64,000 nt of DNA from Flavobacterium sp. 140616W15. GTDB lineage: Bacteria; Bacteroidota; Bacteroidia; Flavobacteriales; Flavobacteriaceae. The position numbers were made by a program, and so were the translations under genes. The stretch lies in the NCBI RefSeq assembly GCF_003668995.1, contig NZ_CP033068.1:3224001-3288000 (forward strand), written 5' to 3'. Below, piece by piece: positions 3,760 through 63,574 of this stretch; the first letter of the stretch is position 1; every line of letters begins with the position of its first letter. The notes beneath the pieces were generated by a model, which ran no database searches, was not told the origin of the DNA, and saw only the letters and a program-made list of their open reading frames with translations.

Positions 3760-4457
3760 TTAATTATCTGAATACTCAAAACTAGCATCCATTTTATCAA
3801 ATGGGATAATTTCAACTAATATCTTTTTTAATTCGACATCACTTAATAACCCTCTTTTAGTTTCTTTCGCTTTAGGCAATAAGATTTCATAGTCTATAAT
3901 TTCTCGATTAAATATAGTCTGCAAAATATCATTTTGCTTATCCGTTAGGTACTTTTTATGAGTTTTAAGAACCTTATCAAGATTATCTTTAAACTCCTTG
4001 TCACTTACATCATTATAAATATCTTGATCAGACATATCTGTTAAAAGCATTCTAAAAATAAAATCCTGCATATTCTTTGCTAGATAATTTACTTCATTCG
4101 CATCATGCCAAACAAAAACCACAGGATTCTCTCCATTATTTTCTTCATTTAAAAAAAACAATAATGATCTCCAGCTCCGCTTTGTCCGAATGGTATAAAT
4201 TTGAATTCTTCTTTTATCTGACGATAATCCTCTGGATCTAATAACTCTTCTATTGCTTCATTTACATTATTGAGATCAAGCAACTCAAAATCATAAGAAT
4301 GTAAAAGCAACGGAGGGTTTTCTTTTAATTTAGGATAAACAGTCAAATACCAATCAGGACCATATTCCCCAACAGTAAGCATCCCGTCTAGAGAAAGGTT
4401 CTTATAAATAATTGGATATGTAAATCCATATTTTTCTTCAATATCTAATAACATCAT
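3760..4457 (-). pseudogene. SMI1/KNR4 (SUKH) family protein, broken by a frameshift
   Basis: Two overlapping reading frames form one protein of about 232 aa. The 5' part (4457 to 4149) contains the SUKH core, ending in FIPFGQSGAGDHYCFF. The frame then stops at TAA within T8 (plus-strand A8 at 4151-4158). Adding one T continues it as FFLNEENNGENPVVFVWHD, which runs to 3760. The joined protein keeps the family pattern of FIPFG..GGDxYCFF followed by a VFxWxHD-like strand and a flexible C-terminal half. SUKH proteins are mostly immunity proteins against secreted nuclease toxins or orphan members of that group. Whether the shift is real or a homopolymer miscall cannot be decided here. No promoter was recognised upstream. 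Confidence 0.75.
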
Positions 4458-4470
4458 AATATATATTTAA

Positions 4471-4527
4471 AAAAAATTGCCTGGTAATTAAACCGTAATC
4501 TAAAATTACAATTTAACTACCAAGCAA
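4471..4527 (-). terminator. Rho-independent terminator after the FAD dehydrogenase gene
   Basis: A 16-bp imperfect inverted repeat (4477-4492 with 4512-4527, two mismatches) is followed on the minus strand by T6 (plus A6 at 4471-4476). It starts 44 bp beyond the stop codon at 4571 and lies just upstream of the SUKH gene start at 4457. Confidence 0.75.
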
Positions 4528-4570
4528 CTAAAATAAGAATATTTTTACCGCTATATAAGCATCCCGCAAA

Positions 4571-6130
4571 TTATTTTAAAGCTTCGGCAATCATCAAAGC
4601 ACATTTTTCTCCATCGATAGCTGCCGATATAATTCCGCCAGCATATCCAGCTCCTTCACCGCAAGGATACAACCCTTTTATCTGTAAATGCTCATAAGTT
4701 AATGGATCTCTCGGAATTCTTACTGGTGAAGATGTTCTGCTTTCTGGCGCATGAAGTATTGCTTCATTGGTTAAATAACCACGCATTGATTTACCAAATT
4801 CAGAAAAACCTTCACGTAATATTTGAGATAAGAAACCTGGAAAAACCTGTCCCATTTCTACCGAAGTAGTTCCAGGAACATAAGATGTTTTAGGAATATC
4901 CGATGAAACTTTATTTTGAGTAAAATCAACCATACGTTGTGCCGGAACTTTTTGAGTTTCTCCCGCCAAATGCCAAGCTTTCTGTTCAATACTTTTTTGA
5001 AATTCCATTCCAGCCAAAGCTCCGAATTTAGCAAACGGCTTAAAATCTTCTAATTTTAATTCGATTACAATTCCAGAATTAGCCGTAGCCTGATCTCTTT
5101 TAGAAGGAGACCAACCATTGGTAACTACTTCACCAGGACTTGTAGCACAAGGAGCAATTACACCACCTGGACACATACAAAATGAATACATCCCTCTCCC
5201 TCCCACTTGTTTCACTATAGAATATGGCGCTGGCGGCAAATGCTCTCCACGGTAATCACAACTATATTGTATACTATCTATTAAAGATTGAGGATGCTCG
5301 GCTCTTACACCCAAGGCAAAAGGTTTAGCCTCAATAAAAATTTTCTTTCTATCTAATAGTTCAAAAATATCACGAGCAGAATGCCCCGTTGCTAATATTA
5401 ACTTATTAGCATTTATCGTATCTCCATTTTGAGTTACAACTCCTTGAACTTCGTTATTTTTCAAAAGAATATCAGTCACTCGGGTTTCAAATAAAACCTG
5501 ACCTCCATATTCAATAATTTTCTCTCTAATATCCTGAATAATCTTTGGCAACTTATTAGTTCCAATATGCGGATGCGCTTCTATCAAAATATCTTCAGAA
5601 GCACCAAAAGCCACAAATAACTCAAGAATCCTTGTTACATCTCCACGTTTTTTTGAACGAGTATATAATTTACCATCTGAGTATGTTCCTGCCCCACCTT
5701 CTCCAAAACAATAATTAGAATCTTCATTTACAAAATGCTCTGTGTTTATTGCTTTTAAATCTCTTCGACGACCACGAACATCTTTTCCTCTTTCAAGTAC
5801 AATTGGTTTCAATCCTAATTCTATTAATTGTAAAGCTGCAAAAAGACCCGCAGGACCTGCTCCCACAACAATTACTTCTTGTGCTCCCGATACATTTTTG
5901 TAATCTGGAATTTCAAATTTAACTGGCTTAAAAACTTCATCTTGCAAATAAATCATCACTTTCAGATTGATTTTTATTGCTTTCTGTCGGGCATCAATCG
6001 AACGCTTTAAAATAGATACATGTTGAATTTCCTTTGGAGAAACCTTAATTTGTTTCGACAAATGTTCTTTTAGCAACAACTCGTTTGCGGCTATTTCGGG
6101 CGATACTTGAAGTAAAAGTTCTCTTGGCAT
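4571..6130 (-). CDS. FAD-dependent dehydrogenase (COG2509-type)
   Basis: 519-aa flavoprotein. An N-terminal region of about 90 residues precedes the dinucleotide-binding motif VIVVGAGPAGLFAALQ (about residues 86-101), and the ADP-ribose-contacting Glu follows at the end of IVLERG. Other family hallmarks are CFGEGGAGTYSDGKLYTR, ILATGHSARDIF, FALGVRAEHPQ, the Cys-rich SFCMCPGGVIAPCAT, and the C-terminal FAD-closing YPCGEGAGYAGGI. This is the uncharacterised COG2509 family of bacterial oxidoreductases; the substrate is unknown. It appears monocistronic: a clear terminator follows and a repeat-filled region lies upstream. The ATG at 6130 fits the family's N-terminus. Confidence 0.85.
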   Translation of the reverse strand: MPRELLLQVSPEIAANELLLKEHLSKQIKVSPKEIQHVSILKRSIDARQKAIKINLKVMIYLQDEVFKPVKFEIPDYKNVSGAQEVIVVGAGPAGLFAALQLIELGLKPIVLERGKDVRGRRRDLKAINTEHFVNEDSNYCFGEGGAGTYSDGKLYTRSKKRGDVTRILELFVAFGASEDILIEAHPHIGTNKLPKIIQDIREKIIEYGGQVLFETRVTDILLKNNEVQGVVTQNGDTINANKLILATGHSARDIFELLDRKKIFIEAKPFALGVRAEHPQSLIDSIQYSCDYRGEHLPPAPYSIVKQVGGRGMYSFCMCPGGVIAPCATSPGEVVTNGWSPSKRDQATANSGIVIELKLEDFKPFAKFGALAGMEFQKSIEQKAWHLAGETQKVPAQRMVDFTQNKVSSDIPKTSYVPGTTSVEMGQVFPGFLSQILREGFSEFGKSMRGYLTNEAILHAPESRTSSPVRIPRDPLTYEHLQIKGLYPCGEGAGYAGGIISAAIDGEKCALMIAEALK

Positions 6131-6207
6131 TTTGTTTTATTTATTCAATTAGCTTTTCTATTTATGAAAAGAACGTGCAAAAATAACATTTTGAACTGAC
6201 TTTATAT

Positions 6208-6356
6208 AATTAACCGCAAAGTGCGCTAAGTTTTTTTTAAAGTTATGTTTTTACAAAACACAAAGTTCGCAAAGCTAGATCAACACAAAGCTTTGCGAAC
6301 TTTGTGTTTTCTATACATGAAATAAAATTAGCTCTTTGCGCACTTTGCGGTTAATT
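6208..6356. repeat. Nested double palindrome (two hairpins, one inside the other)
   Basis: The outer arms are a perfect 19-bp inverted repeat (6208-6226 with 6338-6356, AATTAACCGCAAAGTGCGC). The inner arms are a perfect 22-bp inverted repeat (6255-6276 with 6289-6310, core CACAAAGTTCGCAAAGC). Both arms share the ACCGCAAAGT / CACAAAGTTCGCAAAG word family that I remember as a common flavobacterial intergenic repeat. This element fills most of the 300-bp gap between the divergent genes at 6130 and 6431; otherwise that gap holds only a promoter element. Confidence 0.8.
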
Positions 6357-6394
6357 CCACAATAAGTTTTTCAGTCTTCATAAGAAAGACTTTG

Positions 6395-6402
6395 TACCTT
6401 TG
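6395..6402 (+). promoter_or_regulatory. -7 promoter element TACCTTTG
   Basis: TACCTTTG matches the Bacteroidota -7 consensus TAnnTTTG and lies 28 bp before the ATG at 6431. A clear -33 TTG at the right spacing was not seen, so this is a partial match. Confidence 0.5.
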
Positions 6403-6430
6403 CCTCATTGAAACTTTGTACCTATAAATA

Positions 6431-6676
6431 ATGTCAAGAAAAATAAAACTAATATGGGATTTCCGTGGTCCTGCCTCAGCAAAAACTGCAGAACATCATG
6501 AGATTCATTTAAAAGAATTCATTGCTATCGAAAAGCTACCTTTGAATATAACTGGATTTACAATCCTAAACGATATGTATGCTATTGCCTATATGGTTGT
6601 AACCGATGAAAACATGATTCAGGTACGTGATGCTTTAAAACCGCACCGAGGGGAAGTATTCCCTGAGACTTCTTAG
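6431..6676 (+). CDS. Small conserved hypothetical protein
   Basis: 81-aa protein (MSRKIKLIWDFRGPASA...), no signal peptide, no membrane segment, no cysteine. The sequence looks like a compact ferredoxin-like alpha/beta fold, with WDFRG, HEIHLKEF and ITGFTILNDMYAIAYMVV strands, but I do not recognise a named family. Good support for a real gene comes from the promoter element 28 bp upstream, an ATG start and the compact ORF. It is monocistronic, convergent with recQ, with a hairpin-rich spacer between them. Function unknown. Confidence 0.65.
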   Translation: MSRKIKLIWDFRGPASAKTAEHHEIHLKEFIAIEKLPLNITGFTILNDMYAIAYMVVTDENMIQVRDALKPHRGEVFPETS

Positions 6677-6760
6677 TTTGCAGTCACATTTTTCAGTCGC
6701 AGTACTGAACTTGATTCAAAACAACAGTTGCAGTTTTCAGTTGCAGTGCAGAACTTGAAA

Positions 6761-6818
6761 CAAAAAAACAGTCGCAGTTATAATCTCAGTAAAACTGAAA
6801 ACTAAAAACTGCGACTGT
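6761..6818 (-). terminator. Terminator of recQ, shared with the convergent small gene
   Basis: A perfect 12-bp inverted repeat ACAGTCGCAGTT (6768-6779) / AACTGCGACTGT (6807-6818) lies just after the recQ stop at 6825, followed on the minus strand by T7 (plus A7 at 6762-6768). The wider 6677-6824 spacer contains several degenerate CAGTCGCAGT / CAGTTGCAGT words; the same word forms the lptB terminator at 12,133. Confidence 0.65.
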
Positions 6819-6824
6819 ACACTT

Positions 6825-9020
6825 TTAATTAGCTACTTCACTAATAAATTTTATTCGCATTAGGCGTAATTCATCGATATCATATTCTCCATCAAATTCT
6901 TTAAGAGCATCTTCTATTTTATCTGATTCTGATTCCATAAAGTATTCGTGAATTTCTTCTTGCTGATCGTCATCAAGCATATCATCTACCCAATATTTTA
7001 TATTAAGTTTTGTTCCTGAATATACAATTTGCTCCATTTCTTTAATCAAGGCATCCATCGAAAGTCCTTTTGCTGAAGCAATATCATTAAGTGATAATTT
7101 TCGGTCGATGTTCTGAATAATGTATAATTTATTTACAGAATTAACTCCTGTAGATTTTACAACCAAGTCATCGGGACGAATAATATCGTTTTCTTCAACA
7201 TACCTATTTATTAAGGCTACAAAATCTCCTCCATATTTTTTTGCTTTTCCTTCACCTACTCCATGAATATTATACAATTCGGCAATAGAGATTGGATATT
7301 TTAAAGCCATATCCTCGAGTGAAGGATCTTGAAAAACCACAAATGGAGGAACACCTAATTTCTTAGCAACTTTTTTTCGTAGTTCTCGTAACATCCCCAT
7401 CAAAACTTCATCGGCAGTACCTCCTGATTTTGATGCCGTTACTATAGCTTCATCTTCACTTTCATTATATTCATGATCTTCTGACATCATAAACGAAACT
7501 GGTTTTTTAATAAAATCCAATCCTGCCTTGGTGATTTTTATGATTCCGTAGGTTTCTATATCTTTTGACAAATAGCCTGCTACTAATACTTGACGAAGTA
7601 ATGCCATCCAGTATTTTTCGTCATGATCTGAACCTGACCCGAAATAAGATTGCGAATCAGTTCTGTGTGCTTTAATTACTGCATTTACACGTCCTATTAA
7701 TGTAAATACTATTTCTTTAGATTTATAAATATGTTTTGTATCACGTACAATTTCCAATAATTTCACCACTTGATCTTTGGCTTCGATTTTGGTTTTCGGA
7801 TTACGAACATTATCGTCCATATCAGCTCCTTCTCCTGTTTCGCTGTCGAATTCTTCTCCAAAATAATGAAGTAGGAACTTTCTTCGTGACATCGATGTTT
7901 CGGCGTAAGCCACAACTTCTTGCAACAAGGCAAATCCAATTTCTTGTTCAGCAACTGGTTTTCCTGACATGAATTTCTCTAATTTCTCTACATCTTTATA
8001 GGAGTAATATGCCAAGCAATGTCCTTCACCTCCATCTCGTCCTGCACGACCTGTTTCTTGGTAATAACTTTCGAGTGATTTTGGAATATCGTGATGTATT
8101 ACAAAACGCACATCGGGTTTATCGATTCCCATTCCGAAAGCAATAGTTGCTACTACAACATCTACATCTTCCATAAGGAACATATCTTGATGTTTTGCTC
8201 TTGTTTTTGCATCCAATCCTGCATGGTAAGGAACTGCACTAATTCCATTTACTTGCAAAACCTCTGCAATTGCTTCTACTTTTTTACGGCTTAAGCAATA
8301 TATAATTCCGGATTTTCCTTTGTGTTGTTTTATAAAACGAATAATATCCGATTCTATATTTTTAGTTTTCGTACGAACTTCGTAATATAAGTTTGGTCTG
8401 TTAAACGACGCCTTGAAAGTATTAGCGTCGGACATGTCAAGATTTTTTAAAATATCTTCTTGAACTTTCGGTGTAGCAGTTGCAGTAAGACCAATAATTG
8501 GCACATCACCCAACTGTTTAATAATATGTTTTAGATTTCTGTATTCAGGTCTAAAATCATGTCCCCATTCTGAAATACAATGCGCTTCATCGATAGCGAC
8601 AAATGAAATAGGTACATTTTGAAGAAACTGAACATATTCTTCTTTGGTTAATGATTCGGGGGCAACATATAACAATTTTGTCAAACCAGAAGTAATGTCC
8701 TTTTTTACTTGAGCAATTTCTGTTTTGGTAAGTGAAGAATTCAGAACGTGAGCGATTCCGTTTTCTGAAGAGAGACTCCGAATAGCGTCTACTTGATTTT
8801 TCATCAAAGCAATTAAAGGAGATACAACTATTGCTGTTCCTTCCTGAATTAAAGCGGGCAATTGGTAGCAGAGCGATTTTCCTCCCCCAGTGGGCATAAT
8901 GACAAAAGTATTTTTTTTATTGAGTATACTTTTTATAACCTCTTCTTGCAATCCCTTAAATTGGCTAAAGCCGAAATACTTCTTTAATTCTTTATGTATT
9001 TCAATTTCGTTTGAATTCAT
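6825..9020 (-). CDS. recQ: ATP-dependent DNA helicase RecQ
   Basis: 731-aa 3'-5' DNA helicase of recombination and fork repair. SF2 core motifs: Walker A MPTGGGKSLCYQLP (about residues 42-55), the DEAH box AIDEAHCISEWGHDFRPEY (about 141-159), GLTATATP, motif V around VVATIAFGMGIDKPDVR and motif VI QETGRAGRDGG. An RQC region follows, then an HRDC domain (MLRELRKKVAKKLGVPPF) and a C-terminal extension. The RQC zinc site appears to be missing: where E. coli RecQ has its cysteine cluster this protein reads ETSMSRRKFLLHYFGE and then an acidic stretch with no cysteine. The gene is convergent with a small hypothetical gene and divergent from kdsD, and has its own terminator. Confidence 0.95.
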   Translation of the reverse strand: MNSNEIEIHKELKKYFGFSQFKGLQEEVIKSILNKKNTFVIMPTGGGKSLCYQLPALIQEGTAIVVSPLIALMKNQVDAIRSLSSENGIAHVLNSSLTKTEIAQVKKDITSGLTKLLYVAPESLTKEEYVQFLQNVPISFVAIDEAHCISEWGHDFRPEYRNLKHIIKQLGDVPIIGLTATATPKVQEDILKNLDMSDANTFKASFNRPNLYYEVRTKTKNIESDIIRFIKQHKGKSGIIYCLSRKKVEAIAEVLQVNGISAVPYHAGLDAKTRAKHQDMFLMEDVDVVVATIAFGMGIDKPDVRFVIHHDIPKSLESYYQETGRAGRDGGEGHCLAYYSYKDVEKLEKFMSGKPVAEQEIGFALLQEVVAYAETSMSRRKFLLHYFGEEFDSETGEGADMDDNVRNPKTKIEAKDQVVKLLEIVRDTKHIYKSKEIVFTLIGRVNAVIKAHRTDSQSYFGSGSDHDEKYWMALLRQVLVAGYLSKDIETYGIIKITKAGLDFIKKPVSFMMSEDHEYNESEDEAIVTASKSGGTADEVLMGMLRELRKKVAKKLGVPPFVVFQDPSLEDMALKYPISIAELYNIHGVGEGKAKKYGGDFVALINRYVEENDIIRPDDLVVKSTGVNSVNKLYIIQNIDRKLSLNDIASAKGLSMDALIKEMEQIVYSGTKLNIKYWVDDMLDDDQQEEIHEYFMESESDKIEDALKEFDGEYDIDELRLMRIKFISEVAN

Positions 9021-9043
9021 TCTTTATTTTATGGTATTTTGTA

Positions 9044-9051
9044 TAAATTTG
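9044..9051 (+). promoter_or_regulatory. -7 promoter element TAAATTTG for the kdsD operon
   Basis: TAAATTTG fits the TAnnTTTG consensus in the recQ/kdsD divergent spacer. It lies inside the extended kdsD frame (upstream TTG at 9039), so transcription should begin about 9057. This argues for the later TTG start at 9105. Confidence 0.5.
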
Positions 9052-9104
9052 CATCAATAAAGATACAACTTTCTTTTACACTTACAAATTTTAACTATTC
9101 TGTT

Positions 9105-10891: not shown

Positions 10892-11234
10892 TATCATTCA
10901 AGAATTTAACGATTATCGTTCTAAAATGAACGAGAAATTACTAGCAGATAACAACAAAATTGTAAAGCGAATTTTCAACCTAGACACTAACGCATACGCT
11001 GCAGGTGCTCTTGATGTTAAGACAAAAGAACTTTTAGGCTTAGTTGCCTCAGCCGTTTTACGTTGTGATGATTGTGTAAAATACCATCTTGAAACTAGTT
11101 TTAAAGAAGGTGTCACCAAAGAAGAAATGATGGAAGCAATGGGAATAGCAACCTTAGTCGGTGGCACGATCGTAGTTCCTCATTTGCGAAGAGCATACGA
11201 ATTTTGGGAAGCACTAGAAGAGCAAGGGAATTAG
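10884..11234 (+). CDS. Carboxymuconolactone decarboxylase / AhpD-like protein
   Basis: 116-aa all-helical protein of the CMD/AhpD superfamily. The redox CxxC motif RCDDCVKYHL lies at about residues 58-67, followed by GVTKEEMMEAMGIATLVGG. This CxxC plus downstream His pattern is typical of AhpD-like disulfide/peroxidase-linked proteins and not of true decarboxylases. Probably cytoplasmic; substrate unknown. It overlaps tatC by 8 bp and so is translationally coupled to it. The 133-bp gap to lptB contains an AT-rich 11-bp inverted repeat (AATTAGATAAT / ATTATCTAATT) but no clear promoter. Confidence 0.82.
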   Translation: MSDIIQEFNDYRSKMNEKLLADNNKIVKRIFNLDTNAYAAGALDVKTKELLGLVASAVLRCDDCVKYHLETSFKEGVTKEEMMEAMGIATLVGGTIVVPHLRRAYEFWEALEEQGN

Positions 11235-12108: not shown

Positions 12109-12132
12109 AACGAATTCATATTCAGTATCCAG

Positions 12133-17754: not shown

Positions 17755-19081
17755 TTACCTACTTTTATTCTTAATTACGTTAACAAGAGTTAATGCATAA
17801 ACAAATGCAGGCGCTGCGGTTCGCATAGCAGCATGATTAATTGTTAAAAGCCAAAAGGCATAAAATGACAAAAAGTATAGGTTACTTGTGTGGGTATAAT
17901 ACAATACAAAAGGCATTATGATAAGTATCAGTAATCCAGTTATTCCAAATACTCCATGCTCACTTAACAGACGCGTTATTTCATTATGTGATGCAACATC
18001 TACTCCAAAAGCCTCTTTCCTATATTCTTTACCAAGTCCAGCTCCAACTCCCATTATCGGGTTGTCAAAAAAGGTTTTAATATCTACAGCAATAATTGCT
18101 TCCCTACCTCCTAATCTATCTTTTTTGACTCTTCCTGCTGCGTCCTGATTAGCATAACGCTTCTCTATCAATCCAGAAGTCTGCATAGAAGTATAACTCC
18201 AAATTCCTACTCCCATTATAGCAGTAACGATAAATACTAAAGCCAGTTTATAATTTACTTTTGTACTCGAATAATAATACAGTAACAATAATAATATAAC
18301 AATCATAACTACCCCAGTAATTACACCTCCTCTAGAAAAAGTAACAATTGCTCTATAACTAATAACTAAAAGTAATATCCCGTTGAGGATTTGCATCTTT
18401 TTTGATTTGGAAAGAGAATCAATTGAGTAAAAAACACAAACATTCCTAATCCTAAAATAGTAGAAACCTGGTTAGGTCCAAATCCTCCTGAAGTTTCAAA
18501 ATTAGACTGAGTTCCTGTAACAACACTCTGTACACTAGGATTATATAAGAACAAATAAGTAGTAATTGATATGATCGGCAATCCCATTGCAATAATTATC
18601 TTCTGTAATTCTTGAAAAGTTATCTTTCTATTAAAAGTATATATCGCACAAAAGGCCAAACAAAAAGGACCCGATAAATTAAAAACTAAAACTTTTTTTA
18701 TATCTACAGATAAAATATCTGCAGTGGCCGTTAATAAAATACCTGGAATTAATAACACCAAGAAAAACCAATATAGAAATGAGTTAATCGTAAAGCTACT
18801 ATAGGCCATGCCTAATATCATAAAAAAAAGCACACTTAACTTAATATACTCATTATTAAAATTCCCTCCAGTCATTCTTAAAAAAACCTCAACTCCAACT
18901 AAGTAAGCGACTACTAAAAGCACTTCATTATTTTTGTTCTTTGTTTTAACAACGAAGAACATACCAATGATTGGTATTAAAAGTGCGTAAATTTTAGAAG
19001 AAAAAGGCACTACAAAAACCACCAAAGCAATCAATGTGTGGATAAAAACTAATCTGTAATACGAAAAAAATATTTTTTCAT
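17755..19081 (-). pseudogene. Wzy / O-antigen ligase (WaaL) family membrane protein, frameshifted
   Basis: Polytopic protein of about 440 aa in at least two frames. The upstream frame ends in FGPNQVSTILGLGMFVFFTQ and then FPNQKR at 18,400. Adding one base to the six-base tract at 18398-18403 continues it as KKMQILNGILLLVISYRAI. The C-terminal part has the Wzy_C-like loop FSRGG and GVGAGLGKEYR with SHNEITRLLSEHG. A further one-base shortfall at 19064-19070 (T7 in the coding strand) probably separates an ATG at 19081 (MKKYFFSYYRLVF) from the main frame; without it the gene would start at TTG 19034. The ATG start is 2 bp after the preceding stop, as usual in this operon. Family members join O-antigen to lipid A or polymerise repeat units. 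Confidence 0.8.
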
Positions 19082-19083: not shown

Positions 19084-20157
19084 TTATAATCTGTTATAAG
19101 CTAAAATTAATTTCTGAATTACAACATCCTCTACATAATTTTCTAATACAGTTTTTTTTAAATTCAATCCTAGTTCATTTCTTAGTTCCTCATCTAAAAT
19201 TAACTTAATTATCTGATTTTCTAATTCCAATATTTGTAAAGGATTAAATAATAAACCTGAATTATTGTTATTGATTATTGAAGAACAATACCCTGTATTT
19301 GTTGAAACTACTGGCAATGAAGCAAGTCCATATTCTAATAAAGTCAACGGAAAACCTTCATGTGTAGAAGTTAAAACTCCTATTGTTGCTTGAGATAAAA
19401 TAGAAGTAATATCACTCCTTGAATTATACAAATGGATATCATTTTCTAGAGCATGTTTTTTTATAAATATTTTTATTGATTTCGAATAATCATCTAAATA
19501 GTCTTTACCTATTAAATGCAAACTCCATCCTAAATGATTTAATTTCAAATTCTCAAAAGCCTTTAGCATTATACTATGATTTTTGGGCTCCTTTAAATTT
19601 GCTAAAAATAGTATCCGTTTACCAGCAACGCCTTTTAAAGATGGATCTTTTTCAACTTTATTTATAATTTTTATAAAATTAGGAATAAAATACACTTTTG
19701 AACACAGCATATTTTTTTTATTCCATTGTTCCAATAACGGATTAACCACAAAAACAGATGAAAAAAAAGGAGACAACAGAATTAAATATCTGTTTTTAAT
19801 TTGAGTTTCATCTATGCGTTTACCATAATGATCGTGCCAAGTAATTTTAATTTTTGGCAATGTCAGTTTTAGCAAAACTGCAATAAAAAAAGAGGAGCTA
19901 TGAGCATGAATAATAGTAACTTTATTCTTTATTATGAACTTTCTAAGCCTTAAAATTGCTTTAAAATCTATTACTAGTTTTCTATTTAAAAACAAATAAG
20001 AAACATCTGAATCAATTTGTGTCTTAAGACTACCTTCTTTACGCGTAGCTACTAATCCTGAAAATTCAATCGTTTTGCCAAGGGCGTTAGCAAAATTTAC
20101 TGCCATCCGTTCGGCCCCACCAGCCTCTAATGAATCTATGATTTGCAAAACCCTCAT
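19084..20157 (-). CDS. Glycosyltransferase family 4 protein
   Basis: 357-aa cytoplasmic GT-B enzyme. The N-terminal acceptor domain begins MRVLQIIDSLEAGGAERMAVNFA, and the donor-binding C-terminal domain carries STHEGFPLTLLEYGLASLPVVST with the E-x7-E type pair (about residues 262-285). Retaining GT4 enzymes use nucleotide-activated sugars; donor and acceptor are unknown. The gene overlaps the upstream (frameshifted) glycosyltransferase by 4 bp (ATGA), showing translational coupling, and is followed 2 bp later by the proposed ATG of the Wzy/ligase gene. Confidence 0.88.
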   Translation of the reverse strand: MRVLQIIDSLEAGGAERMAVNFANALGKTIEFSGLVATRKEGSLKTQIDSDVSYLFLNRKLVIDFKAILRLRKFIIKNKVTIIHAHSSSFFIAVLLKLTLPKIKITWHDHYGKRIDETQIKNRYLILLSPFFSSVFVVNPLLEQWNKKNMLCSKVYFIPNFIKIINKVEKDPSLKGVAGKRILFLANLKEPKNHSIMLKAFENLKLNHLGWSLHLIGKDYLDDYSKSIKIFIKKHALENDIHLYNSRSDITSILSQATIGVLTSTHEGFPLTLLEYGLASLPVVSTNTGYCSSIINNNNSGLLFNPLQILELENQIIKLILDEELRNELGLNLKKTVLENYVEDVVIQKLILAYNRL

Positions 20158-21271
20158 GATTGCAGTATTTTTTTTATTTCAGTTTCAAAGATATCTTTTG
20201 TGAATTGTTGCGACCATTCTGATGCTTTTATACTTTTATCCACATAACATTTCCTGTCTTCTATAATTGCTTCTAACTGAATTGTATCATTAGACAAATT
20301 CATCTCTAATAAAACTCCTCTATCGCCATGATTTAACATAAATGGCACACATGAAACAGCTGTCACTACGGGAACACATCCCCAAAACATTCCCTCTGCA
20401 ATCGCTTTTGGCCATCCTTCACTTTTAGATGGGAGCAATACGAAATGACTTTTTTGATATGCCTTTTTAATTGTCTCTTGGTTTTGATTTCCTTTTAAAA
20501 AGATGTTTTTTTCTAATTGATTATTTTGAATGTATTCTTCTAAAACAGTTCTTTCAATTCCCTCACCATATAAATTTAAATTTACATTTTTTCCTTTTCT
20601 AATAAGTTGTTCAACTAGTTGTATTGCATAGAGCGGATTTTTACCCCTAACTAAATTTCCAACAAAAACAAATTCTATAGTTTTATTAAAATCTGTTTTT
20701 TGAATAACTTCTTTATCTTTTTCAGAATAGGTAGCCGTAAAAAAAGGTTTACAGTTTTTAGATTGCCTTGGCCATTCTCCATAAACCAAAACCTGTATAT
20801 TTTTAGTTAAGAAAGTATTACTTAAAATATATTTCTGCAATTTATAAGACCATGGTTGCTTACTCTTAGGGTCCCAATTTCCTGCGTATTTAGCAGTCTT
20901 TTTTTGTTGGGAAAAAGAATTTGGACAAAACATCCCAATAAACCAATATTTCCTGGGCAACGTAAATGAATATGATCTGCATTTTTCATTGCCTGATAAA
21001 TAATTTTCATGTTTACAAAAACACTATAGAATGAATTCAATACCGCGGCAACTGATTTAATATTAAATTTTATTAATTGAATTGGCGGAAGCATATTGAA
21101 TGGAATTTCTGAAATTAATAAACCTTCATCTGTTTCCCAAATAGGAGCACAAAATTGTACTTCATCTACATAATGACTCCAAATCTTAATTTCGTTTATA
21201 TAAGGACTATAGGCATACCATTTATCATGAGAAGCTATTAAGGGAGCAGAAGATATGATAAGTAATTTCAT
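20154..21271 (-). pseudogene. Glycosyltransferase family 4 protein, frameshifted
   Basis: One GT-B enzyme of about 372 aa split in two frames. The first frame (from 21271) runs through HIHLRCPGNIGLLGCFVQIL and FPNKK, then goes astray. One extra base in the seven-base tract at 20899-20905 continues it as KTAKYAGNWDPKSKQPWSY in the frame ending at 20154. The donor domain has VFVGNLVRGKNP, LYGEGIER and LPSKSEGWPKAIAEGMFWGCVPV. The start at 21271 overlaps the stop of the acetyltransferase gene by one base. The frames join without loss of any expected residue, which favours a single-base miscall over decay. Confidence 0.83.
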
Positions 21272-31282: not shown

Positions 31283-32247
31283 TTAAATAAGAGAACATTT
31301 TCTTATCAGCCTAACAAAATATCCCTTTAAGAAATAGGGAATTACATTTATAGGATTTCGTTTTTCAGAATTTCTTTTACTAATTAATCTATCATTTTTT
31401 AAAATACTAAGATCTAAATTTTGATCAATAGTATTTCCCATATGATATGCAAATGCTTTGGGCAAGGAAACTCTATAATATCCTAATTTATCTATTGGAA
31501 TATCCAAAAAATCTAATTCACCTCCAGGAAAAACATAAATTGGTTTTTGAAATGGTAATTTTTTAAATATTTTTTTTCTGTAAGTAGATGCAAAGTGATT
31601 TGCTCCTACGATAACTCTGACATCCTCTTTTTCAAGATAATATTGTTTCTCTTTCCAATTTGTTTTTTGGGTTACAAATAAATTTGCATTACCAATACTA
31701 TTCTCAAATAATTCTAAATCGGTATCGGCTACAATTTTTCCTTTTTTAATTTTAAAATATTCTGAATAGAAAATAGAATTATTACAGTAAAAAGCCATAT
31801 TGGGATCAGGTGTTAAACCTACAACTCCAACCTCTTTAAATTTTTCAAAAACGTCTTGAACTTTTGATTGCCAATTATTTAAAAAAAACACATCTGCATC
31901 TGCAATGGTTAAAAAATCTTCATAAGAAGCTCTTGCTTCTTGTAAAACAGCATATACTTTACCTTTATTCTCAGCGTATTTTACATACTTATCAATTATT
32001 TTTTATCAAAATAACTTTCAATTAAACATTGAACATCATAATTTGAATTATTGTTTAATATAGTAATTGCAGTGTTGTCTGTATCTATTGTTCTAATTAA
32101 AGACTCAATACAAAATTTAAAAACATCCAAAGATTCTTTATAATAATCATCTTCATTTTTCGGTATAAAAACGGGGATAATTATCCTGTGTTTTTTATAC
32201 ACTAATTTTCTAGATTCTTTTTTCTCTGGATTTTGACCTACTCGCAT
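31283..32247 (-). pseudogene. GT2-like glycosyltransferase, frameshifted
   Basis: A protein of about 321 aa split in two. The first frame starts at 32247 (MRVGQNPEKKESRKL) and stops at YFDKK because the six-base tract at 31999-32004 is one short. With one more A it reads on as IIDKYVKYAENKGKVY, then AVLQEARASYEDFLTIADAD, then VFFLNNWQSKVQDVF, joining the frame that ends at 31283. The ADAD segment is a plausible GT-A metal-binding motif. The reader should ignore the apparent short start near 31891; it is internal. The gene lies 14 bp after the GT14 gene. Confidence 0.8.
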
Positions 32248-39313: not shown

Positions 39314-40182
39314 CTATACCGTATCGATAAAACTTTTTTCTGTTTTATTGAAGACTAATAATCCTGCAAAAAAAATAATAACTGTTATAATAAAAGTATA
39401 AAGAAGACCATAGAAAGAAATATCACCTATATTCAAAAGCATATATCTTGATGTCTCAATTATATAGGCTAACGGATTGTATTGTACTATCCACCCATAA
39501 TTGGGTAATTTATCTTTAATTAATGCCATTGGATATACAACTGCAGAAAGATACATTAGTAGTTGTACTCCAAAATTAATTAAATTACTAAAATCTCTAT
39601 ATTTAGTAACGAGCGAAGATATCAGCATACCTAAACCTAACGCAAGAACCCCCATTAAAACAACCAATAGAGGAAAAAAACTGTTACAGCATTTAAACTA
39701 ATAACAGCTCCTTGAGAATAATAGTAAATATAGGAAGCGATAAAAATCAAAAACTGAATTCCAAATTTTATCAAATTTGAAATTACAATGGATAAAGGTG
39801 TAATTATTCTTGGGAAATATACTTTTCCAAAGATTCCAGCATTAGCTCTAAAAGTGTCGGAGGTTGCTGTAAGACAAGATGTGAAGTAGTTCCAAACAGT
39901 AATTCCTGCAAGGTTGAATAAAAAAGGAGGTACAGATTCGGTATCGATTCCGGCAATGTTATTAAATAGTATAGTAAATATTATAGATGTAAGTAAAGGC
40001 TGGATTAAATACCAAAGTGGCCCTAAAACTGTTTGTTTATAAACCGTTACGATATCTCTTTTAACAAAAAGAAACAACAAGTCACGGTATTGCCAAACTT
40101 CTTTTATATGTAGCGAAAAAAAATTATTCTTAGGTGTTATTTCAAACAACCAAGGAGCCGAAACATCTTTTGATTTGTTCAT
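39314..40182 (-). pseudogene. wzm: Polysaccharide ABC exporter permease (Wzm), frameshifted
   Basis: ABC-2 type permease of about 289 aa with six transmembrane segments, split in two frames. The N-terminal frame (from 40182) has WQYRDLLFLFVKRDIVTVYKQ and LGPLWYLIQPLLTSIIFTI, then stops at VTVFFLYWLF. One extra T in the seven-base tract at 39674-39680 gives VTVFFPLLVVLMGVLALGLG and joins the frame ending at 39314. No domain is lost. Partner of the Wzt ATPase in exporting an undecaprenyl-linked glycan to the periplasm. Without an intact permease the exporter would be dead, so a miscall is a serious possibility. Confidence 0.85.
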
Positions 40183-51602: not shown

Positions 51603-52689
51603 TTAATCGAAAACAGACTGATAAGGAAAATAAGTAAAACTAATTGCCTCATCATTATACCTCGTATTTAAAGTTTTAAATGTATTTAACAAAATTAGAA
51701 CAAGTAACAACAATCCTATAATACGATATCTAAAATTATAAATCAAGATAGGTAATATAATAATATCTAACATCCTAAAATAGACATTTGTACGAAGTGA
51801 AAATTCCGAAATGGAGTTAAAAACCATAAAATAAATTAAACCTAAAAAATAAATATTAACAAAAACGTTAATTATCTGAGGTTTATAAGTGGTTCTATAT
51901 TTCAAAAAAAGTAAAATACAAAACATAATGATTAATAAAAAAAATGTAGAGCTAAATCCAATTCTATTAGCAAATTCGGAACCAGAATATAATTCTGCTT
52001 TTGAACTAAAGCTTTCAATTGGCAAAAGAGACATCAATTTAAAAATCATCCCTTTTATGTCGAAAGCAACAAACGGGAGCAATAAAAATATTGAAGTAAA
52101 GTAAAAAAATATAGATTTTTTTAAATTATAAATAAAATATAATGGTAAAACACAAATAGCTGAAAAATGAAATAAAGTCGCCAATAAAACTACTAATAAA
52201 AACTTCTTCTTTTTTTCATTTATAAGACAATCGTAAGCATAAAAAATAATCCCCATACCAATACCATGACGAATTTGCCCCATCTCTTTTATCATAAAAT
52301 CAGTAGAAAAATATATAATTAAAGAAAGAAACACAAATGGAGAATATTTTAAAAAAAATTAATTTTAAATAAAACTCCTATTGCTGCAATAACCAATAAA
52401 CTAATTTGAAAAGAAGAAATACTTAAAATCCGTAATAAAAAAATATATCCTGGCTCAGTAAACTGAATCATCCAACTATCTAGATTACCAGACTCAACCT
52501 CTTTAAACATAGCCTCATAAGCATCAATGTCAGGGCTTAAAGTTCTTAATCCGGCAAAAAAAACAAAAAAACAGAAATGGAAATAAATAAAAACTTCTTA
52601 CCTATTGAATTTTCAAAAAGATTAAAGAAAAAAAAATCAAATACTGAAAGGAAACACAGTATTAATAATATTAATATATAAATTCCCAT
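51603..52689 (-). pseudogene. EpsG-family polysaccharide polymerase (Wzy), broken by two frameshifts
   Basis: Polytopic membrane protein of about 362 aa in three frames. It starts with ATG at 52689 (MGIYILILLILCFLSVFDFF). A first single-base shortfall lies in the T7-G-T8 coding stretch (plus strand 52556-52571); repairing it yields AGLRTLSPDIDAYEAMF. A second lies in the T8 at 52351-52358 and gives INFFLKYSPFVFLSLIIYF. The rest (IRHGIGMGIIFYAY and following helices) is intact to 51603. The GLRTxxxDxxxYxxMF segment is typical of the EpsG/Wzy group. It would polymerise repeat units in the periplasm after the Wzx flippase. The 357 bp at 52335-52692 that look gene-free in any single frame belong to this gene. 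Confidence 0.82.
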
Positions 52690-56798: not shown

Positions 56799-56915
56799 TA
56801 CATTCCAAACTGATGAAAAACAAATAAATTCAGATAATTCATTTTTAACAAAATTGATACATTATACAACTCTTCAATATATTACTTCACAACGAACTAA
56901 CTCATAACATCCTAA

Positions 56916-57482: not shown

Positions 57483-58872
57483 TTTTTAAAAAATTTAATA
57501 TTATTTTTTTATTAATAAACGATACCAAAATTAACATTAAAACTAACAAAAGTAACTGAAATTTGAATCCTAAGATATTCATTAAATAAATCGTAGCAAT
57601 GATGAAAATTAAAGACATTATATAATAAAACTCATTTATCCCAAGTTTTAATTCTTTTTTTAAATCAAAATATCTCAATAGATATACAACAAAGAATCCC
57701 GAAAAATAAGATACCGATATGCCATATAAACCCCATCGTTCTACCAATAGAAATCCTAATACGATAGATACAACACCTCCAATTATTGTAGTAGAAGTTA
57801 TTTTTGCAGTGCTTCTTCTTTTTTGATAAATAAGACTAATTAATGCTGCTACGGTGTTAAAACCTACACCTAAATACAGGAAAGGCATATATTTCCAAGA
57901 TTCATAAAACTCATTATTAACAACGTATTTAGTGTAAATAGGTGCTCCTGCAATAAGAATAAGGATTACACTAAATTCTATTTTTATAAAGTGAACCAAT
58001 AAGTTACTAAAATCTTCCATTTTAATATCTTTTTTAAGGAAAGCATCTTGTATAGGTAAAACAAAAACTGAATTTATGATAACTATTATCGATGGAAATC
58101 TAGACGAAATGGCATAAATTCCGTTAGCTTCAGGTCCTAAATAATGCAAAATTATAAATTTGCTTGCTGAACCTATAGCCCACCAACTCATCAAATTAGG
58201 AATAAGAGGAAGTGAATAATGACACATCTCTTTTAATAATTTTTTATTCAAATATTTAAAAGAACAATATTTAAATATTCTAATTTGAAAAATCATGAAT
58301 AAACTAGCAATCGTGTAGGCAACAATATTAGCAAGTAAAATCCCTTCTACTCTTAAATGAAGTACATATATGAATACAACATTAAAGATGATTACTAAAA
58401 ATGTGGTAATAAAACCATTTACTGCAAATTTTTTAGTATCTCCTTCACCTCTTAAAATACTTTGCAGTATTGGTAGTAAACAATTTAAAAACATTAAAGT
58501 AAAAAAATATTCTTTGTATTCAAAAGTTTCAAACACACTGTAAATTAGAAAAAGAAAAGAAAAAAAGAAAAACCCAACACCAAACGCAATCATGGTATTG
58601 GTAATTATTTCTGCTTTTAATCTTTCATTTTGTTTGTCTCTATCAATTAACCAGCGATAAGCAGAATCCGATATTTGCAAAGAAACGAGAGGAACAAACA
58701 AAGTAATTGTAGTGATAAAGATATCATATTCACCTAAATCTTTTTTAGTTAGTAAAAAGGTGTAAAATGGAAGGAGTAAAAAAGATATTATTTTTGATCC
58801 AAAACTTCCTATAGAATAAATTAATGTTTCCTTAAACAGTTTTTTCCCAAGGTGGTCAGAAGAATCTCCCAT
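57475..58872 (-). CDS. wzx: Wzx-type oligosaccharide flippase
   Basis: About 465-aa polytopic membrane protein of the MOP/PST flippase superfamily, roughly 12-14 hydrophobic segments. N-terminal KETLIYSIGSFGSKIISFLL and PFYTFLLTKKDLGEYD, and the mid-protein YSLPLIPNLMSWWAIGSASKF, are typical of PST flippases. It moves the undecaprenyl-linked repeat unit to the periplasm. I start it at the ATG at 58872 (MGDSSDHLGKK), 2 bp after the wecB stop; a longer start at 58911 would overlap wecB by 37 bp. Works with EpsG-type polymerase, Wzz and the SLBB exporter of the same operon. Confidence 0.9.
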   Translation of the reverse strand: MGDSSDHLGKKLFKETLIYSIGSFGSKIISFLLLPFYTFLLTKKDLGEYDIFITTITLFVPLVSLQISDSAYRWLIDRDKQNERLKAEIITNTMIAFGVGFFFFSFLFLIYSVFETFEYKEYFFTLMFLNCLLPILQSILRGEGDTKKFAVNGFITTFLVIIFNVVFIYVLHLRVEGILLANIVAYTIASLFMIFQIRIFKYCSFKYLNKKLLKEMCHYSLPLIPNLMSWWAIGSASKFIILHYLGPEANGIYAISSRFPSIIVIINSVFVLPIQDAFLKKDIKMEDFSNLLVHFIKIEFSVILILIAGAPIYTKYVVNNEFYESWKYMPFLYLGVGFNTVAALISLIYQKRRSTAKITSTTIIGGVVSIVLGFLLVERWGLYGISVSYFSGFFVVYLLRYFDLKKELKLGINEFYYIMSLIFIIATIYLMNILGFKFQLLLLVLMLILVSFINKKIILNFLKND

Positions 58873-58874
58873 AT

Positions 58875-59996
58875 TTAATTTGTTCTTATGAATTCTACTA
58901 TCCTTTGGCAAGCTTTACCATCTCCATAAGGATTATGTAAAGCACTCATGTACTTATAGTGCCCAATATTTATTAATAAATTATTTGTTTCTGAAACAAT
59001 TCTCTCTTTATTAGTTCCAACTAAAATTACCGTTCCGGCATCAACTGCTTCTGGTCTTTCTGTTGTATCACGCATTACCAAAACAGGTTTACCTAAACTA
59101 GGTGCTTCTTCCTGTACACCACCAGAGTCTGTTATAATCAAATACGATTGTTTCATTAACCAAACAAAGGCTGGATACGTTAAAGGGTTAATCAAATTAA
59201 CATTAGAAATATTTGATAAAATTTCATAAACCGGTTCTTTTACATTCGGATTTAAATGTACTGGATAAATCACTTGAACATTTAGATGTTGTTCTGCAAT
59301 TTCTTTTAAAGCCTCGCAAATATTATTAAACCCTTGTCCATGATTTTCACGTCGATGGCCAGTCACTAAAATAATTTTTTTAGAAGAATCAATTATTGTT
59401 TTTAAATAATCTATTTCCTCATTATCAACATTATCAACTATTGAAACACTTGCTAATAACGCATCTATTACAGTATTTCCAGTTACTAATATGCTATTCG
59501 GGTTGATGTTTTCTGCTAATAAATTATTTTTTGAAGCAGTTGTAGGAGCAAAATGAAAATCTGCAATACGTCCAGTTACTTGGCGATTAATTTCTTCTGG
59601 AAATGGAGATCGTTTATTATGTGTACGTAAACCTGCCTCTACATGACAAATTTTTGCACCTGAGTAAAAAGCTCCAATGCTAGCTGCCATTGTAGTAGTT
59701 GTATCACCATGAACATAAACATAATCAGGTTTAAAATCTTCTAAAATTGATTTTAATCCTGAAATAATATCTGCAGTTAAAGAATATAAATTCTGATTAG
59801 CTTTCATTAAATCTAAATCATAATCTGGAGTAATTTTAAAGAAATGTAATACTTGATCTAACATTTCACGATGTTGGGCTGTTACACAAACTCTGGTTTC
59901 AAAATGATTTGTATTTTTTTGAAATTCTTTAACTAGAGGAGCCATTTTAATAGCTTCTGGTCTTGTCCCAAAAATGATTAAATTTTTAATCTTCAT
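58875..59996 (-). CDS. wecB: UDP-N-acetylglucosamine 2-epimerase (non-hydrolysing), WecB
   Basis: 373-aa GT-B-like epimerase giving UDP-ManNAc. Motifs: NLIIFGTRPEAIKMAPLV, VYVHGDTTTTMAASIGAF, CHVEAGLRTHNKRSPFPEEI, VTGHRRENHG and TDSGGVQEEAPSLGKPVLV, RDTTERPEAV. Full length. No UDP-ManNAc dehydrogenase (WecC) is present in this window, so UDP-ManNAc may be used directly, reduced elsewhere, or WecC is encoded outside. A second, hydrolysing epimerase (NeuC) is in the other half of the locus. Confidence 0.94.
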   Translation of the reverse strand: MKIKNLIIFGTRPEAIKMAPLVKEFQKNTNHFETRVCVTAQHREMLDQVLHFFKITPDYDLDLMKANQNLYSLTADIISGLKSILEDFKPDYVYVHGDTTTTMAASIGAFYSGAKICHVEAGLRTHNKRSPFPEEINRQVTGRIADFHFAPTTASKNNLLAENINPNSILVTGNTVIDALLASVSIVDNVDNEEIDYLKTIIDSSKKIILVTGHRRENHGQGFNNICEALKEIAEQHLNVQVIYPVHLNPNVKEPVYEILSNISNVNLINPLTYPAFVWLMKQSYLIITDSGGVQEEAPSLGKPVLVMRDTTERPEAVDAGTVILVGTNKERIVSETNNLLINIGHYKYMSALHNPYGDGKACQRIVEFIRTN

Positions 59997-60041
59997 ATAT
60001 TAATTGATATTAAAACTTTAAATTAAATAATAGATAGTATA

Positions 60042-61114
60042 CTATGAAGAAAGGGCTTCTTTAATATATTTTTTAACAATGATAACTAAAACACAAATGA
60101 ATCCAAAAATAAAATATCCAATTATCATTCCTTTAGCTTTACCAAAATGCTCTTTTGCCAATGGCAAGATAGGCCTGTCTATCACCTGAATTAAAGGTGT
60201 TTCTTTACGTAATGTCACTTTAGCTAATTCGGTTTGCTTTACTAATTCAGTTAAAATTGCTGTATTAGCTTGAACATCTACTTGCCTTCTAGAAGATGGG
60301 GCCCGTCTCACATTTAAAGCTGGATTTAAGTTAAACGTTTTGTCCGTAGCTATAGCTACCCCAGTAATTGCTCCATTAAGTTCTCTTCTAATAGAGTCAG
60401 TTTGTCTTTCTAAAATCAACATGTTCATTCTAGATTTTTTACTTTTAGTAGCCACATAAAAATCTGATACCTCTTTAGCTAATGCTTCACAGAAATATTT
60501 AGCAAATAATTCATCCGTAGAAGAAACATCAATATTGATTATCGCTATTTTTTTATCTTTTTGTCCAACTACCAATCCCCTTTTAGATAATCCTTGATAG
60601 ATTGAGCCTAAAATACTATCATGCACTCTTGTAAAATATTTACGTTTTGTATTAGGTAAGAAATGAATATTAGCTAGTTTCGGTTTTTCTTTCCAGTTGT
60701 CTCTAAACTTATTAATATCAATATACATTTCGGCCAAAGAAATTTCCTTGTCTTTATAGTTTACAGAAGTTAATAAAGTTTGCTCTACCATTCTACGAGA
60801 TTTAAGCAACTGTGTTAAATTGGAACCTGTAAAAATACTTCCTCCACCTCCTCCAAGATCTAAACCTAAAGAGCCCGCTAAACCTAATGCACTTCCTAAA
60901 CCTCCTCCCGATTTTTCTTCTTCTAATGCAAATGTCAAAGTAGCTGTATAAACAGGTTTTTTATCAAAGAATATACAATTCCCAAAGATGCTCCAATTAT
61001 CCCTGCTAAGACAATAATTTTCCACTGTGATAACAGATAAAAATACCATTCTTTTACACTTAATACTAATCCTTTTAACGAAATTTCATCGTCTTGAATT
61101 GATCTCTTATCCAT
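60042..61114 (-). pseudogene. wzz: Wzz-like chain-length regulator, one frameshift near the N-terminus
   Basis: About 357-aa inner-membrane protein. An ATG at 61114 opens MDKRSIQDDEISLKGLVLSV, followed by a transmembrane helix IIVLAGIIGASLGIVYS. The frame then fails by one base at 60966-60968 (T3 in the coding strand); repairing it joins FDKKPVYTATLTFALEEEKS. A glycine-rich stretch (SALGLAGSLGLDLGGGGG), a coiled-coil periplasmic part and a second helix near the C-terminus (MIIGYFIFGFICVLVII) follow. The main frame alone reaches only an internal ATG at 61049. It lacks a visible BY-kinase domain. It tunes chain length with the EpsG-type polymerase and SLBB exporter. Confidence 0.82.
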
Positions 61115-61128
61115 TTTAAAACTTATTA

Positions 61129-63574
61129 TTATTTAAAAGCAGTGATAATTAATAATGCTAAACTAGAAATCACACTACCAATACCAACCCATTCTCCCGT
61201 TGTCATCTTTTTAACTACTGGTCTTTCAGGAACTACAATTTGAGAATCCGGAGTTACCTTGGGATAGGACCTAAAGAATAAGAAAGAACTTGCTACAGCA
61301 GCTTTTCCATTCGGGTAAATTATATAGGCTTTTTTCTTCCACCCCATATTATCAACACCTCCAACAGCATTTAAATAGTACTTGAAGCTTTTCCCGCTTC
61401 TATAGGGTATTTCCGAAGTCAACAATACATTACCTGTTACTTTTACTCCTTCATTATAGGTAGCAACTTCTATTTCATCCCCAGGAAACAAAGTAACATT
61501 TGAGTAATGATTTTTATCTTTTACAATTCTTTCCCAATCGATTGGAATCGTTGCATATTTCAGTTCGTCTTTTAATTTTTTAACTAATTGTTTCTCCTTT
61601 AAAGAATCGCCATTTCTCAAATTTAAATCAATACTTTCTAATTTCTCTATTTGTTCTTCTTTAATAGGTCTTTTTATTTTCAATCCATCCAAATTAGCAA
61701 TAGATGTTAATCCTCCAGCACGCATTACAACGTTATATACCGTTTCTTTTTTGTTTGCCAAAACATATTTACCAGGATAAGAAATTGCACCACTTATTTT
61801 AACCATCTCTGGTTTTTCATAAACAGCCATTCTTCGTATGTTAATAACATCAAAAGGCATTAACGCGAAGTTTTTAATTTGTTCATTATTTCCATCATTA
61901 ATTTCCAACTCAAATACATCTACTCGTTTTGGGTCTGCATCATTAATAGCATCCGATTTTTTCATTCTAGCAATTTCAACTCGTTTTGATGCTGAACCTG
62001 TTAAACCTCCAACTTCAACAACCAAGTCGTTCAATGTTAAGTTTTCATAAAACTCGTACTCACCTGGATTTTTAACTTCTCCATCAATCGTAACTTTGTA
62101 TTCTTCTCTAAAATCCAAAATAGAATATACTGTTACAATATCTTCTCTTTTAATAATACGTCAGAATTTAAATCCCCTGAAAGTGCTTTTGCTAAATCAA
62201 CATTTACAATTTCTGTCGTTAAATCCGATTTTAAACGAATAATCCTGGCTCGTTTTGTATAAGCATCTTCTTTTAAACCTTCTGCTCTTGTTATTAATTC
62301 AGAGATACGCATTCCTTCTGTAAAAGAATAGAAATCTGGTCTAAACACTGCTCCTTCAACTTGAATACGATTTTCAAATCGATTTAATATTTTTGCCACT
62401 TTAACAACATCTCCAGATTGAGGTTGGTATATGTTAAATTCACTTTCATTAACATCATGAACCTTAAACTCTTTTCCTGTTTTCTGTAAAACATTTACCG
62501 AAGCTGTATAAGCTAAGTCATTAAATCCTGATGTAAAAGATAATAAATCATTAAAAGTCTCCCCTTTTTTCATCTCAAAAATTCCTGGACGTTTCACCTC
62601 TCCTGTTACTGTTACTCGCATGCTGTAAGCTGGAATTCGAATAACATCATTTTCTTTCAAGCCAACATTATCTGATTGATCTCCTTTTAGTAAAAACTTA
62701 TATATGTCTATATTTCTATAAACCCTGTTATTACGAATCAATTCAATATTCCTATAGCTACCATTTTTGCCTGGTCCACCTGCTAAATGCAAAGCATTAT
62801 ATACTGTCGCCAAAGAAGACACTGAATAATTACCAGGTTGTTTCCCTCCAACAATAGTAATTTTGATTGTTCTTATTTTTGCTAAACTAACACTTACTTG
62901 CGATTGACCTGATCTAACCGTACTATACACTTTTGCAATAGCAGCTTTAATTTTTGTGTAGCTGCCTCAATAGTCATTCCCGATACAGCAATTTGACCGA
63001 CATATTGTATCGTAATCTTTCCTTCAACACTTACAGGAATATTATCTTCAAATTCCTGAACACCATAAACACTAATTTGTAATTCATCTCCAGGCCCTAA
63101 AATATAATTCATTGGCGTTGCCAATTTCAGATCAGGCTCAAAATTCAATGTAGGATTATCAAATAACTCGGAACCAAAGATTAAAGCATTTATAGAATCT
63201 TTTATTTTAACATTGATAATTTCTTGCTGTTTCCTTCCGAATTCAGTCTTTTTATTTTTGCCATCCTTACCATCTAAATCTTTATCTTTTGGATCTTTAT
63301 CTTTCTGGTCTTTTTTAGAAACCTGATCTAATCTTATTTTCAATTTAGAAAACTCAGATTTACTCATTCCTTTTGATAGAATTGCTTCCTCTGCATCGTC
63401 TATACTAAGACTTTTAGCTTCTAATTGATTTTTGATTTTATTAATATCACTATCTGATAAATAATCAACTTTAACAGCACTTAAATCTTTAGACTTTAAA
63501 ATATCTTGAGCTGACATATTTAATGATACCAAAAGAGCAAAAAATAATATAAATACTGCCGTTATCTTTTTCAT
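61129..63574 (-). pseudogene. SLBB-domain polysaccharide export protein (Wza-like), two frameshifts
   Basis: One gene for about 815 aa in three frames. ATG at 63574 begins a signal peptide (MKKITAVFILFFALLVSLNMSA). A Lys/Asp-rich linker precedes the polysaccharide-export domain (ILGPGDELQISVYGVQEFED). A one-base shortfall at 62946-62955 breaks EAATQKLKAAIAKVYSTVRS; several SLBB beta-grasp domains follow (GNYSVSSLATVYNALHLAG, GEVKRPGIFEMKKGETFND). A second shortfall at 62148-62151 breaks LLKREDIVTVYS; further SLBB domains (GEVKNPGEYEFYENLTLND) lead to a C-terminal hydrophobic segment (GIGSVISSLALLIITAF). This is the outer-membrane conduit and periplasmic stack of the Wzx/Wzy route. Confidence 0.87.

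What the first reader, a model, noticed from the sequence alone, without database searches (positions are those of the whole stretch)
3760..63574. Eleven single-base shortfalls in A/T homopolymers split eight genes
I re-joined the frames by hand. In every case one extra A or T in a short A/T run restores one continuous, family-like protein. Sites (plus strand): 4151-4158, 18398-18403, 19064-19070 (probable), 20899-20905, 31999-32004, 39674-39680, 52351-52358, 52556-52571, 60966-60968, 62148-62151 and 62946-62955. All are in the same direction (one base short), none removes a domain and no other stop codons appear. This is the mark of homopolymer under-calling in a 454, Ion Torrent or uncorrected nanopore assembly. 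Real decay would also give point nonsense mutations and insertions. Slippage-driven phase variation is possible but would not be expected twice in one gene or in runs of 3-5. Anyone reading this locus as degenerate would probably be misled.
Basis: partly seen in the sequence, partly recalled or inferred. Interest (0 to 1): 0.7.

Follow-up and report, generated by a model that had tools for sequence, protein, structure and literature searches.

The report
Genome-wide one-base-short assembly errors
The eight split genes are most likely not broken in the living bacterium: the assembly drops single bases here and there across the genome, even inside genes the cell cannot live without, so the damage is a sequencing artefact.

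Summary
Ten of 11 sites are confirmed by intact relatives or homologues; the eleventh (19064-19070) fits by codon spacing only. The window lies in a single-contig 4.94 Mb Flavobacterium genome, in a polysaccharide locus.

Frame-split tests on 0.8 Mb of this genome (about 0.52 Mb of comparable coding sequence) find the same shifts outside the window. They hit rpoC (two frames, 732 + 771 aa; 1449-1453 in 5 of 5 relatives) and tsaD (203 + 190; 354-365 in 5 of 5), and probably rho. Every counted shift leaves this assembly short. Three relatives against each other give 0 splits in 1,095 gene comparisons. Outside the window the hits do not avoid conserved genes. A cell cannot live with rpoC frameshifted, so consensus error is the explanation.

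Corrections: run lengths are not generally compressed, so the errors are sparse and the platform cannot be named; and the window is enriched about threefold (7 events, 2.3 expected, p about 0.006, uncorrected for how it was picked), perhaps from uneven read support. Ordinary artefact; low interest.

The parts
3760..4457 (-). SMI1/KNR4 (SUKH) family gene in two frames; break at 4151-4158
   Evidence: orthologues of 232-233 aa whole in frig, hyd and kms; PF09346 in the frig orthologue
17755..19081 (-). O-antigen ligase/polymerase-like gene (Wzy_C) in two or three frames; breaks at 18398-18403 and, weaker, 19064-19070
   Evidence: 452-aa frig orthologue switches frame in 18396-18432; spacing from the start codon one base short
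20154..21271 (-). group 1 glycosyltransferase in two frames; break at 20899-20905
31283..32247 (-). family 2 glycosyltransferase in two frames; break at 31999-32004
   Evidence: four 321-aa homologues switch frame at 31996-32002; PF00535 listed for most homologues
39314..40182 (-). ABC-2 membrane protein (polysaccharide exporter permease, beside a Wzt_C ATPase) in two frames; break at 39674-39680
51603..52689 (-). EpsG family gene in three frames; breaks at 52351-52358 and 52556-52571
   Evidence: 362-aa homologues at 83-91% identity over the C-terminal piece
60042..61126 (-). 356-361-aa protein beside the wza-like gene, no Pfam match in its larger piece; in two frames, break at 60966-60968 (upper end approximate)
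   Evidence: 59 relatives' ORFs switch frame here
61129..63598 (-). Wza-like polysaccharide export protein (Poly_export plus SLBB) in three frames; breaks at 62148-62151 and 62946-62955
   Evidence: whole at 817-830 aa in frig, hyd and kms

Best explanation
The eight genes are whole in the organism. The assembly has sparse residual consensus errors, nearly all single-base deletions in or beside short A/T runs, spread over the genome (20 events in 478 kb of comparable coding sequence outside the window) and denser in some stretches, this locus among them. Shown: the same errors sit in genes needed for life, are private to this assembly and go one way only. Inferred: that uneven read support makes the density vary, and that each of the 11 window sites individually is an error.
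For: rpoC is in two frames here (732 + 771 aa) and one frame of 1449-1453 aa in 5 of 5 relatives; tsaD is 203 + 190 aa here, 354-365 aa in 5 of 5; rho's open frame is 443 aa here, 614-621 aa in 4 of 4 (pieces in two frames). As target this assembly shows 9 of 150, 13 of 243 and 12 of 230 split genes against kms, frig and hyd; the six comparisons among those three give 0 of 1,095. Regions B and C: 8 of 144 and 4 of 114 genes split, reverse 0 of 148 and 0 of 117. All 27 events leave this assembly short. 24 of 27 have an A/T run of 5 or more within 15 nt, against 25% of random coding positions. Outside the window, 9 of 20 events are in genes at least 96% identical, which are 261 of 478 kb. Of 19 in-frame stops found on region A, 12 lie in shifted stretches of one multiply gapped gene, 3 at counted shifts, 2 about 14 residues from a gene start and 2 in a gene only 60% identical. 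Kastor (PMC12007338, passages seen): in a MinION assembly false deletions were the majority of indels, most after four to five like bases.
Against: Run lengths are not compressed overall, so a grossly under-called assembly is ruled out; only runs of 10 or more are fewer (4 here, 8, 7 and 8 in relatives), too few to weigh. The window holds 7 of 27 events on 8.4% of the run-weighted exposure (p 0.006, uncorrected for its having been picked for this). Over all 27 events the struck genes are slightly less conserved than expected (p 0.065); the tendency is absent outside the window (p 0.43). No reads were available.
Confidence: 0.94

Rival explanations
1. Real loss of function: the polysaccharide locus is decaying or was lost in laboratory culture, perhaps in a mutator strain, and the shifts are real mutations.
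For: The window is enriched (7 of 27 events on 8.4% of exposure), and surface polysaccharide genes are a usual target of real loss (recalled).
Against: The same shifts hit rpoC and tsaD; all 27 counted go one way; no clear nonsense codons; outside the window conserved genes are not spared.
Confidence: 0.03
2. Slippage-driven phase variation of surface polysaccharide genes, the sequenced clone being in the off state at several genes.
For: Most struck window genes make or export polysaccharide, and some runs reach 7-8 bases.
Against: Several sites are runs of 3-5; relatives keep the frames open; the same shifts occur in rpoC, tsaD and an aconitase B. One paper search (Flavobacterium, phase variation, polysaccharide, homopolymer) listed 2 papers, neither on this by title and abstract start (listing only).
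Confidence: 0.02
3. Real frameshifts in the DNA rescued by slipping RNA polymerase or ribosomes, as proposed for A runs in insect endosymbionts (recalled; search listing).
For: Would explain broken essential genes in a living cell; AT-rich genome (GC 0.32 in region A).
Against: Most runs here are short for this (recalled); five close relatives have open rpoC and tsaD frames; the 4.9 Mb genome is not a reduced one.
Confidence: 0.01

Closest known systems
Gene-fragmenting indel errors of long-read assemblies (Kastor, PMC12007338; Homopolish, PMC8011154; passages seen)
   Same: Single-base deletions, mostly in or beside short homopolymers, private to one assembly, cutting genes that relatives keep whole.
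   Different: Far fewer than the thousands of indels reported for some nanopore drafts: 20 events in 478 kb of compared coding sequence outside the window, and no loss of runs of 5-9. The platform is unknown.
Phase-variable homopolymer (contingency) genes (recalled)
   Same: A change of run length puts surface polysaccharide genes out of frame.
   Different: Here housekeeping genes are hit too, many runs are short, and all counted changes go one way.

Membership tests
Assembly consensus deletion error | Also in genes that cannot be lost | tested here: met
   rpoC and tsaD in two frames, 5 of 5 relatives in one
Assembly consensus deletion error | Private to this assembly | tested here: met
   0 of 1,095 gene comparisons among three relatives split
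Assembly consensus deletion error | One direction of change | tested here: met
   all 27 counted events leave this assembly short
Assembly consensus deletion error | Hits independent of gene conservation | tested here: met
   outside the window mean identity of struck genes 93.60, expected 93.72, p 0.43; all 27 events 90.91 against 93.08, p 0.065
Assembly consensus deletion error | Reads disagree with the consensus | not testable with these tools
   no reads held
Systematic homopolymer under-calling | Long A/T runs depleted against relatives | tested here: not met
   runs of 8 or more in region A: 170 here; 166, 196 and 170 in kms (379 kb), frig and hyd; runs of 10 or more 4 against 8, 7 and 8
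Decaying pseudogenes | Nonsense mutations and insertions beside deletions | tested here: not met
   no insertion-type events among those found; no clear independent nonsense codon among 19 in-frame stops of region A; regions B and C not scanned for stops
Phase-variable contingency genes | Mixed run lengths within one culture | not testable with these tools
   no reads held
Phase-variable contingency genes | Confined to surface or other non-essential genes | tested here: not met
   rpoC and tsaD struck, also an aconitase B and a methylglyoxal synthase

The most novel reading that the evidence does not exclude
Within an error-laden assembly, a few of the window's shifts are real: the excess over the genome background reflects true run-length switching or recent loss in this polysaccharide locus, which would make it a homopolymer-switched surface locus in Flavobacterium.
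Probability: 0.05. Interest if true: 0.4.

Novelty: not a real feature. Interest (0 to 1): 0.12.

Why it matters
A genome listed as 99.96% complete in one contig still carries frame breaks in rpoC and tsaD. Anyone using it to infer loss of surface polysaccharide, pseudogene load or gene content would be misled; the essential-gene test used here is cheap and needs no reads.

Tried and rejected
Run-length compression as the signature of under-calling: looked for and not found. A plain nucleotide-gap count against kms was noisy in diverged stretches, with paired compensating gaps, so it was replaced by frame-split tblastn. Selection against hits in conserved genes: none outside the window, slight and non-significant overall. 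Spatial clustering: heterogeneity p 0.043, largest 20-kb bin not extreme (p 0.24). The EpsG search in 60 relatives gave only weak distant hits and was followed by the protein search. Counting details: of 16 clusters in region A one (genome 3447767) fell outside the gene table and was dropped, leaving 15; with 8 and 4 from regions B and C that makes 27. Rho (not passed by the gap rule) and GAPDH (seen only in the reverse comparison) are not among the 27, nor are the window sites 19064, 31999, 52351 and 52556, which the three relatives did not show at the filter used. The region-A cluster in the 401-aa gene is a net -2 and counted once. The exposure weights by run length were set by hand from the same events, so those p values are approximate.

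Full report
What was claimed. Eleven single-base shortfalls in A/T runs split eight genes, and this is sequencing error rather than decay.

Where it is. The window is bases 3,224,001-3,288,000 of a single-contig genome of 4,935,222 bases listed as 99.96% complete. The closest named loci by the first piece of the wza-like gene are Flavobacterium frigoritolerans (85%), F. sp. ALJ2, F. sp. KMS, F. shii and F. hydatis (77-79%); RecQ is 99% identical in all five. The window holds a polysaccharide locus between recQ (6825-9020) and a wza-like gene (61129-63598): glycosyltransferases, nucleotide-sugar enzymes, Wzt- and ABC-2-type exporter parts, a flippase-like protein, EpsG and an O-antigen ligase-like gene.

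Checking the sites. Runs and frames are as stated. I aligned relatives' whole ORFs to the window by tblastn and looked for colinear pieces in different frames, never joining the pieces. Of 1,011 ORFs from 86 relatives' loci, 18 span the break at 20899, 59 that at 60966, 62 that at 62148 and 64 (from 63 loci) that at 62946. Three of three close relatives confirm 4151, 39674 and the last three sites, and one confirms 18398. Database homologues confirm 31999 (4 of 4 tested, 321 aa), the EpsG break at 52351 (P0002-P0004) and that at 52556 (P0002 and P0004). The 19064 site rests only on codon spacing against one orthologue. For the ABC-2 gene 174 of 249 genus genomes have a match; the list is cut, and nearly all rows shown have open frames of 263-355 aa against 180 here; three rows (G177, G224, G267) are shorter.

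Is it the locus or the genome? I took 400 kb of this genome around the window (region A) and the matching contigs of KMS (379 kb), F. frigoritolerans (400 kb) and F. hydatis (400 kb). Against these, this assembly shows 9 of 150, 13 of 243 and 12 of 230 genes split, every shift making it short. The three relatives against each other show 0 splits in 150, 174, 149, 224, 174 and 224 genes. In reverse, ORFs of this assembly on the relatives give 0 of 160, 2 of 254 and 1 of 236 splits. Those three come from two ORFs of this assembly that run past a shift: a TonB receptor already counted, and a GAPDH whose tail changes frame. Sixteen clusters of events result, seven of them in the window.

The decisive part. 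Two further 200-kb regions of this genome, near rpoB (B) and rho (C), were compared with 200 and 164.5 kb of F. frigoritolerans: 8 of 144 and 4 of 114 genes are split, all -1; the reverse gives 0 of 148 and 0 of 117. One of the eight is rpoC: a family search gives two frames of 732 and 771 aa here and 1449-1453 aa in five of five relatives. One of the four is tsaD: 203 + 190 aa here, 354-365 aa in five of five. In the atpD search a weak second paralogue has a frame of 443 aa here and 614-621 aa in four of four relatives; I name it Rho from its sequence by recall, and its 609-aa frig relative lies in two frames here. Other struck genes by best family model: methylglyoxal synthase and a UDP-sugar dehydrogenase (over cut-off), and, below the curated cut-offs, aconitase B (only 721 of 923 residues scanned), methylmalonyl-CoA mutase small subunit and a ketoacyl-ACP synthase III relative. 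rpoB, dnaN and atpD are whole here. That a cell cannot live with a frameshift in the middle of rpoC is established knowledge, not a result of mine.

Pattern. All 27 events used leave this assembly short. 24 of 27 have an A/T run of 5 or more within 15 nt, 15 of them with 5 as the longest; among random coding positions 25% do. One event (a MoxR-like gene by recall) sits at a G run. Nineteen in-frame stops were found on region A: 12 in the shifted stretches of one multiply gapped 401-aa gene, 3 at counted shifts, 2 about 14 residues from a gene start and 2 in a gene only 60% identical; none is a clear nonsense mutation of its own. Outside the window there are 20 events in 478 kb, and 9 fall in the 261 kb of genes at least 96% identical, so conservation does not shape their position. 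The A/T run-length spectrum for runs of 3-9 resembles that of the relatives, also in noncoding DNA; runs of 10 or more are 4 here and 7-8 in the relatives, too few to weigh. So the errors are sparse, and a generally under-called assembly is excluded. The published profile of gene-fragmenting errors in a MinION assembly, mostly deletions after four to five like bases, fits (PMC12007338, passages).

What is left over. The window carries 7 of 27 events on 8.4% of the run-weighted exposure (p 0.006, not corrected for the window having been chosen because of the breaks). Events are uneven elsewhere too: all 8 of region B lie in its first 65 of 200 kb, and overall heterogeneity has p 0.043. Uneven read support is the likely reason but is not shown. 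I cannot exclude that one or two window shifts are real.

Verdict.

Noticed in passing
own genome 3210721-3211920 (about window -13279 to -12082; L109): A 401-aa LCAT-like gene carries several small gaps, some outside homopolymers, against kms and hyd; either a dense patch of errors or a real pseudogene.
   Followed up: partly
own genome 2526467-2527117 (L211): The Rho-like open frame is 443 aa here and 614-621 aa in four relatives, with pieces in two frames; the break lies in a poorly aligned stretch and was not counted.
   Followed up: partly
own genome 3163132-3164235 (L107:3132-4235 +): The type I GAPDH frame runs to 367 aa because its last residues change frame against F. frigoritolerans; a further likely one-base shortfall.
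   Followed up: partly
own genome 265000-400000 (L189-L195): About 135 kb with comparable genes and no frame split, next to 65 kb with eight; event density is uneven along the contig.
   Followed up: partly
window 31283-32247: A database protein (P0016, 98% identical, 321 aa, 9 cluster members, longest contig 115,277 bases) shows that a close relative with the gene whole exists; its source is not shown.
   Followed up: no
window 17755-59996: The locus holds both ABC-exporter parts (Wzt_C ATPase, ABC-2 permease) and flippase/polymerase-type parts (Polysacc_synt, EpsG, Wzy_C), so possibly two polysaccharides are made from one locus.
   Followed up: no
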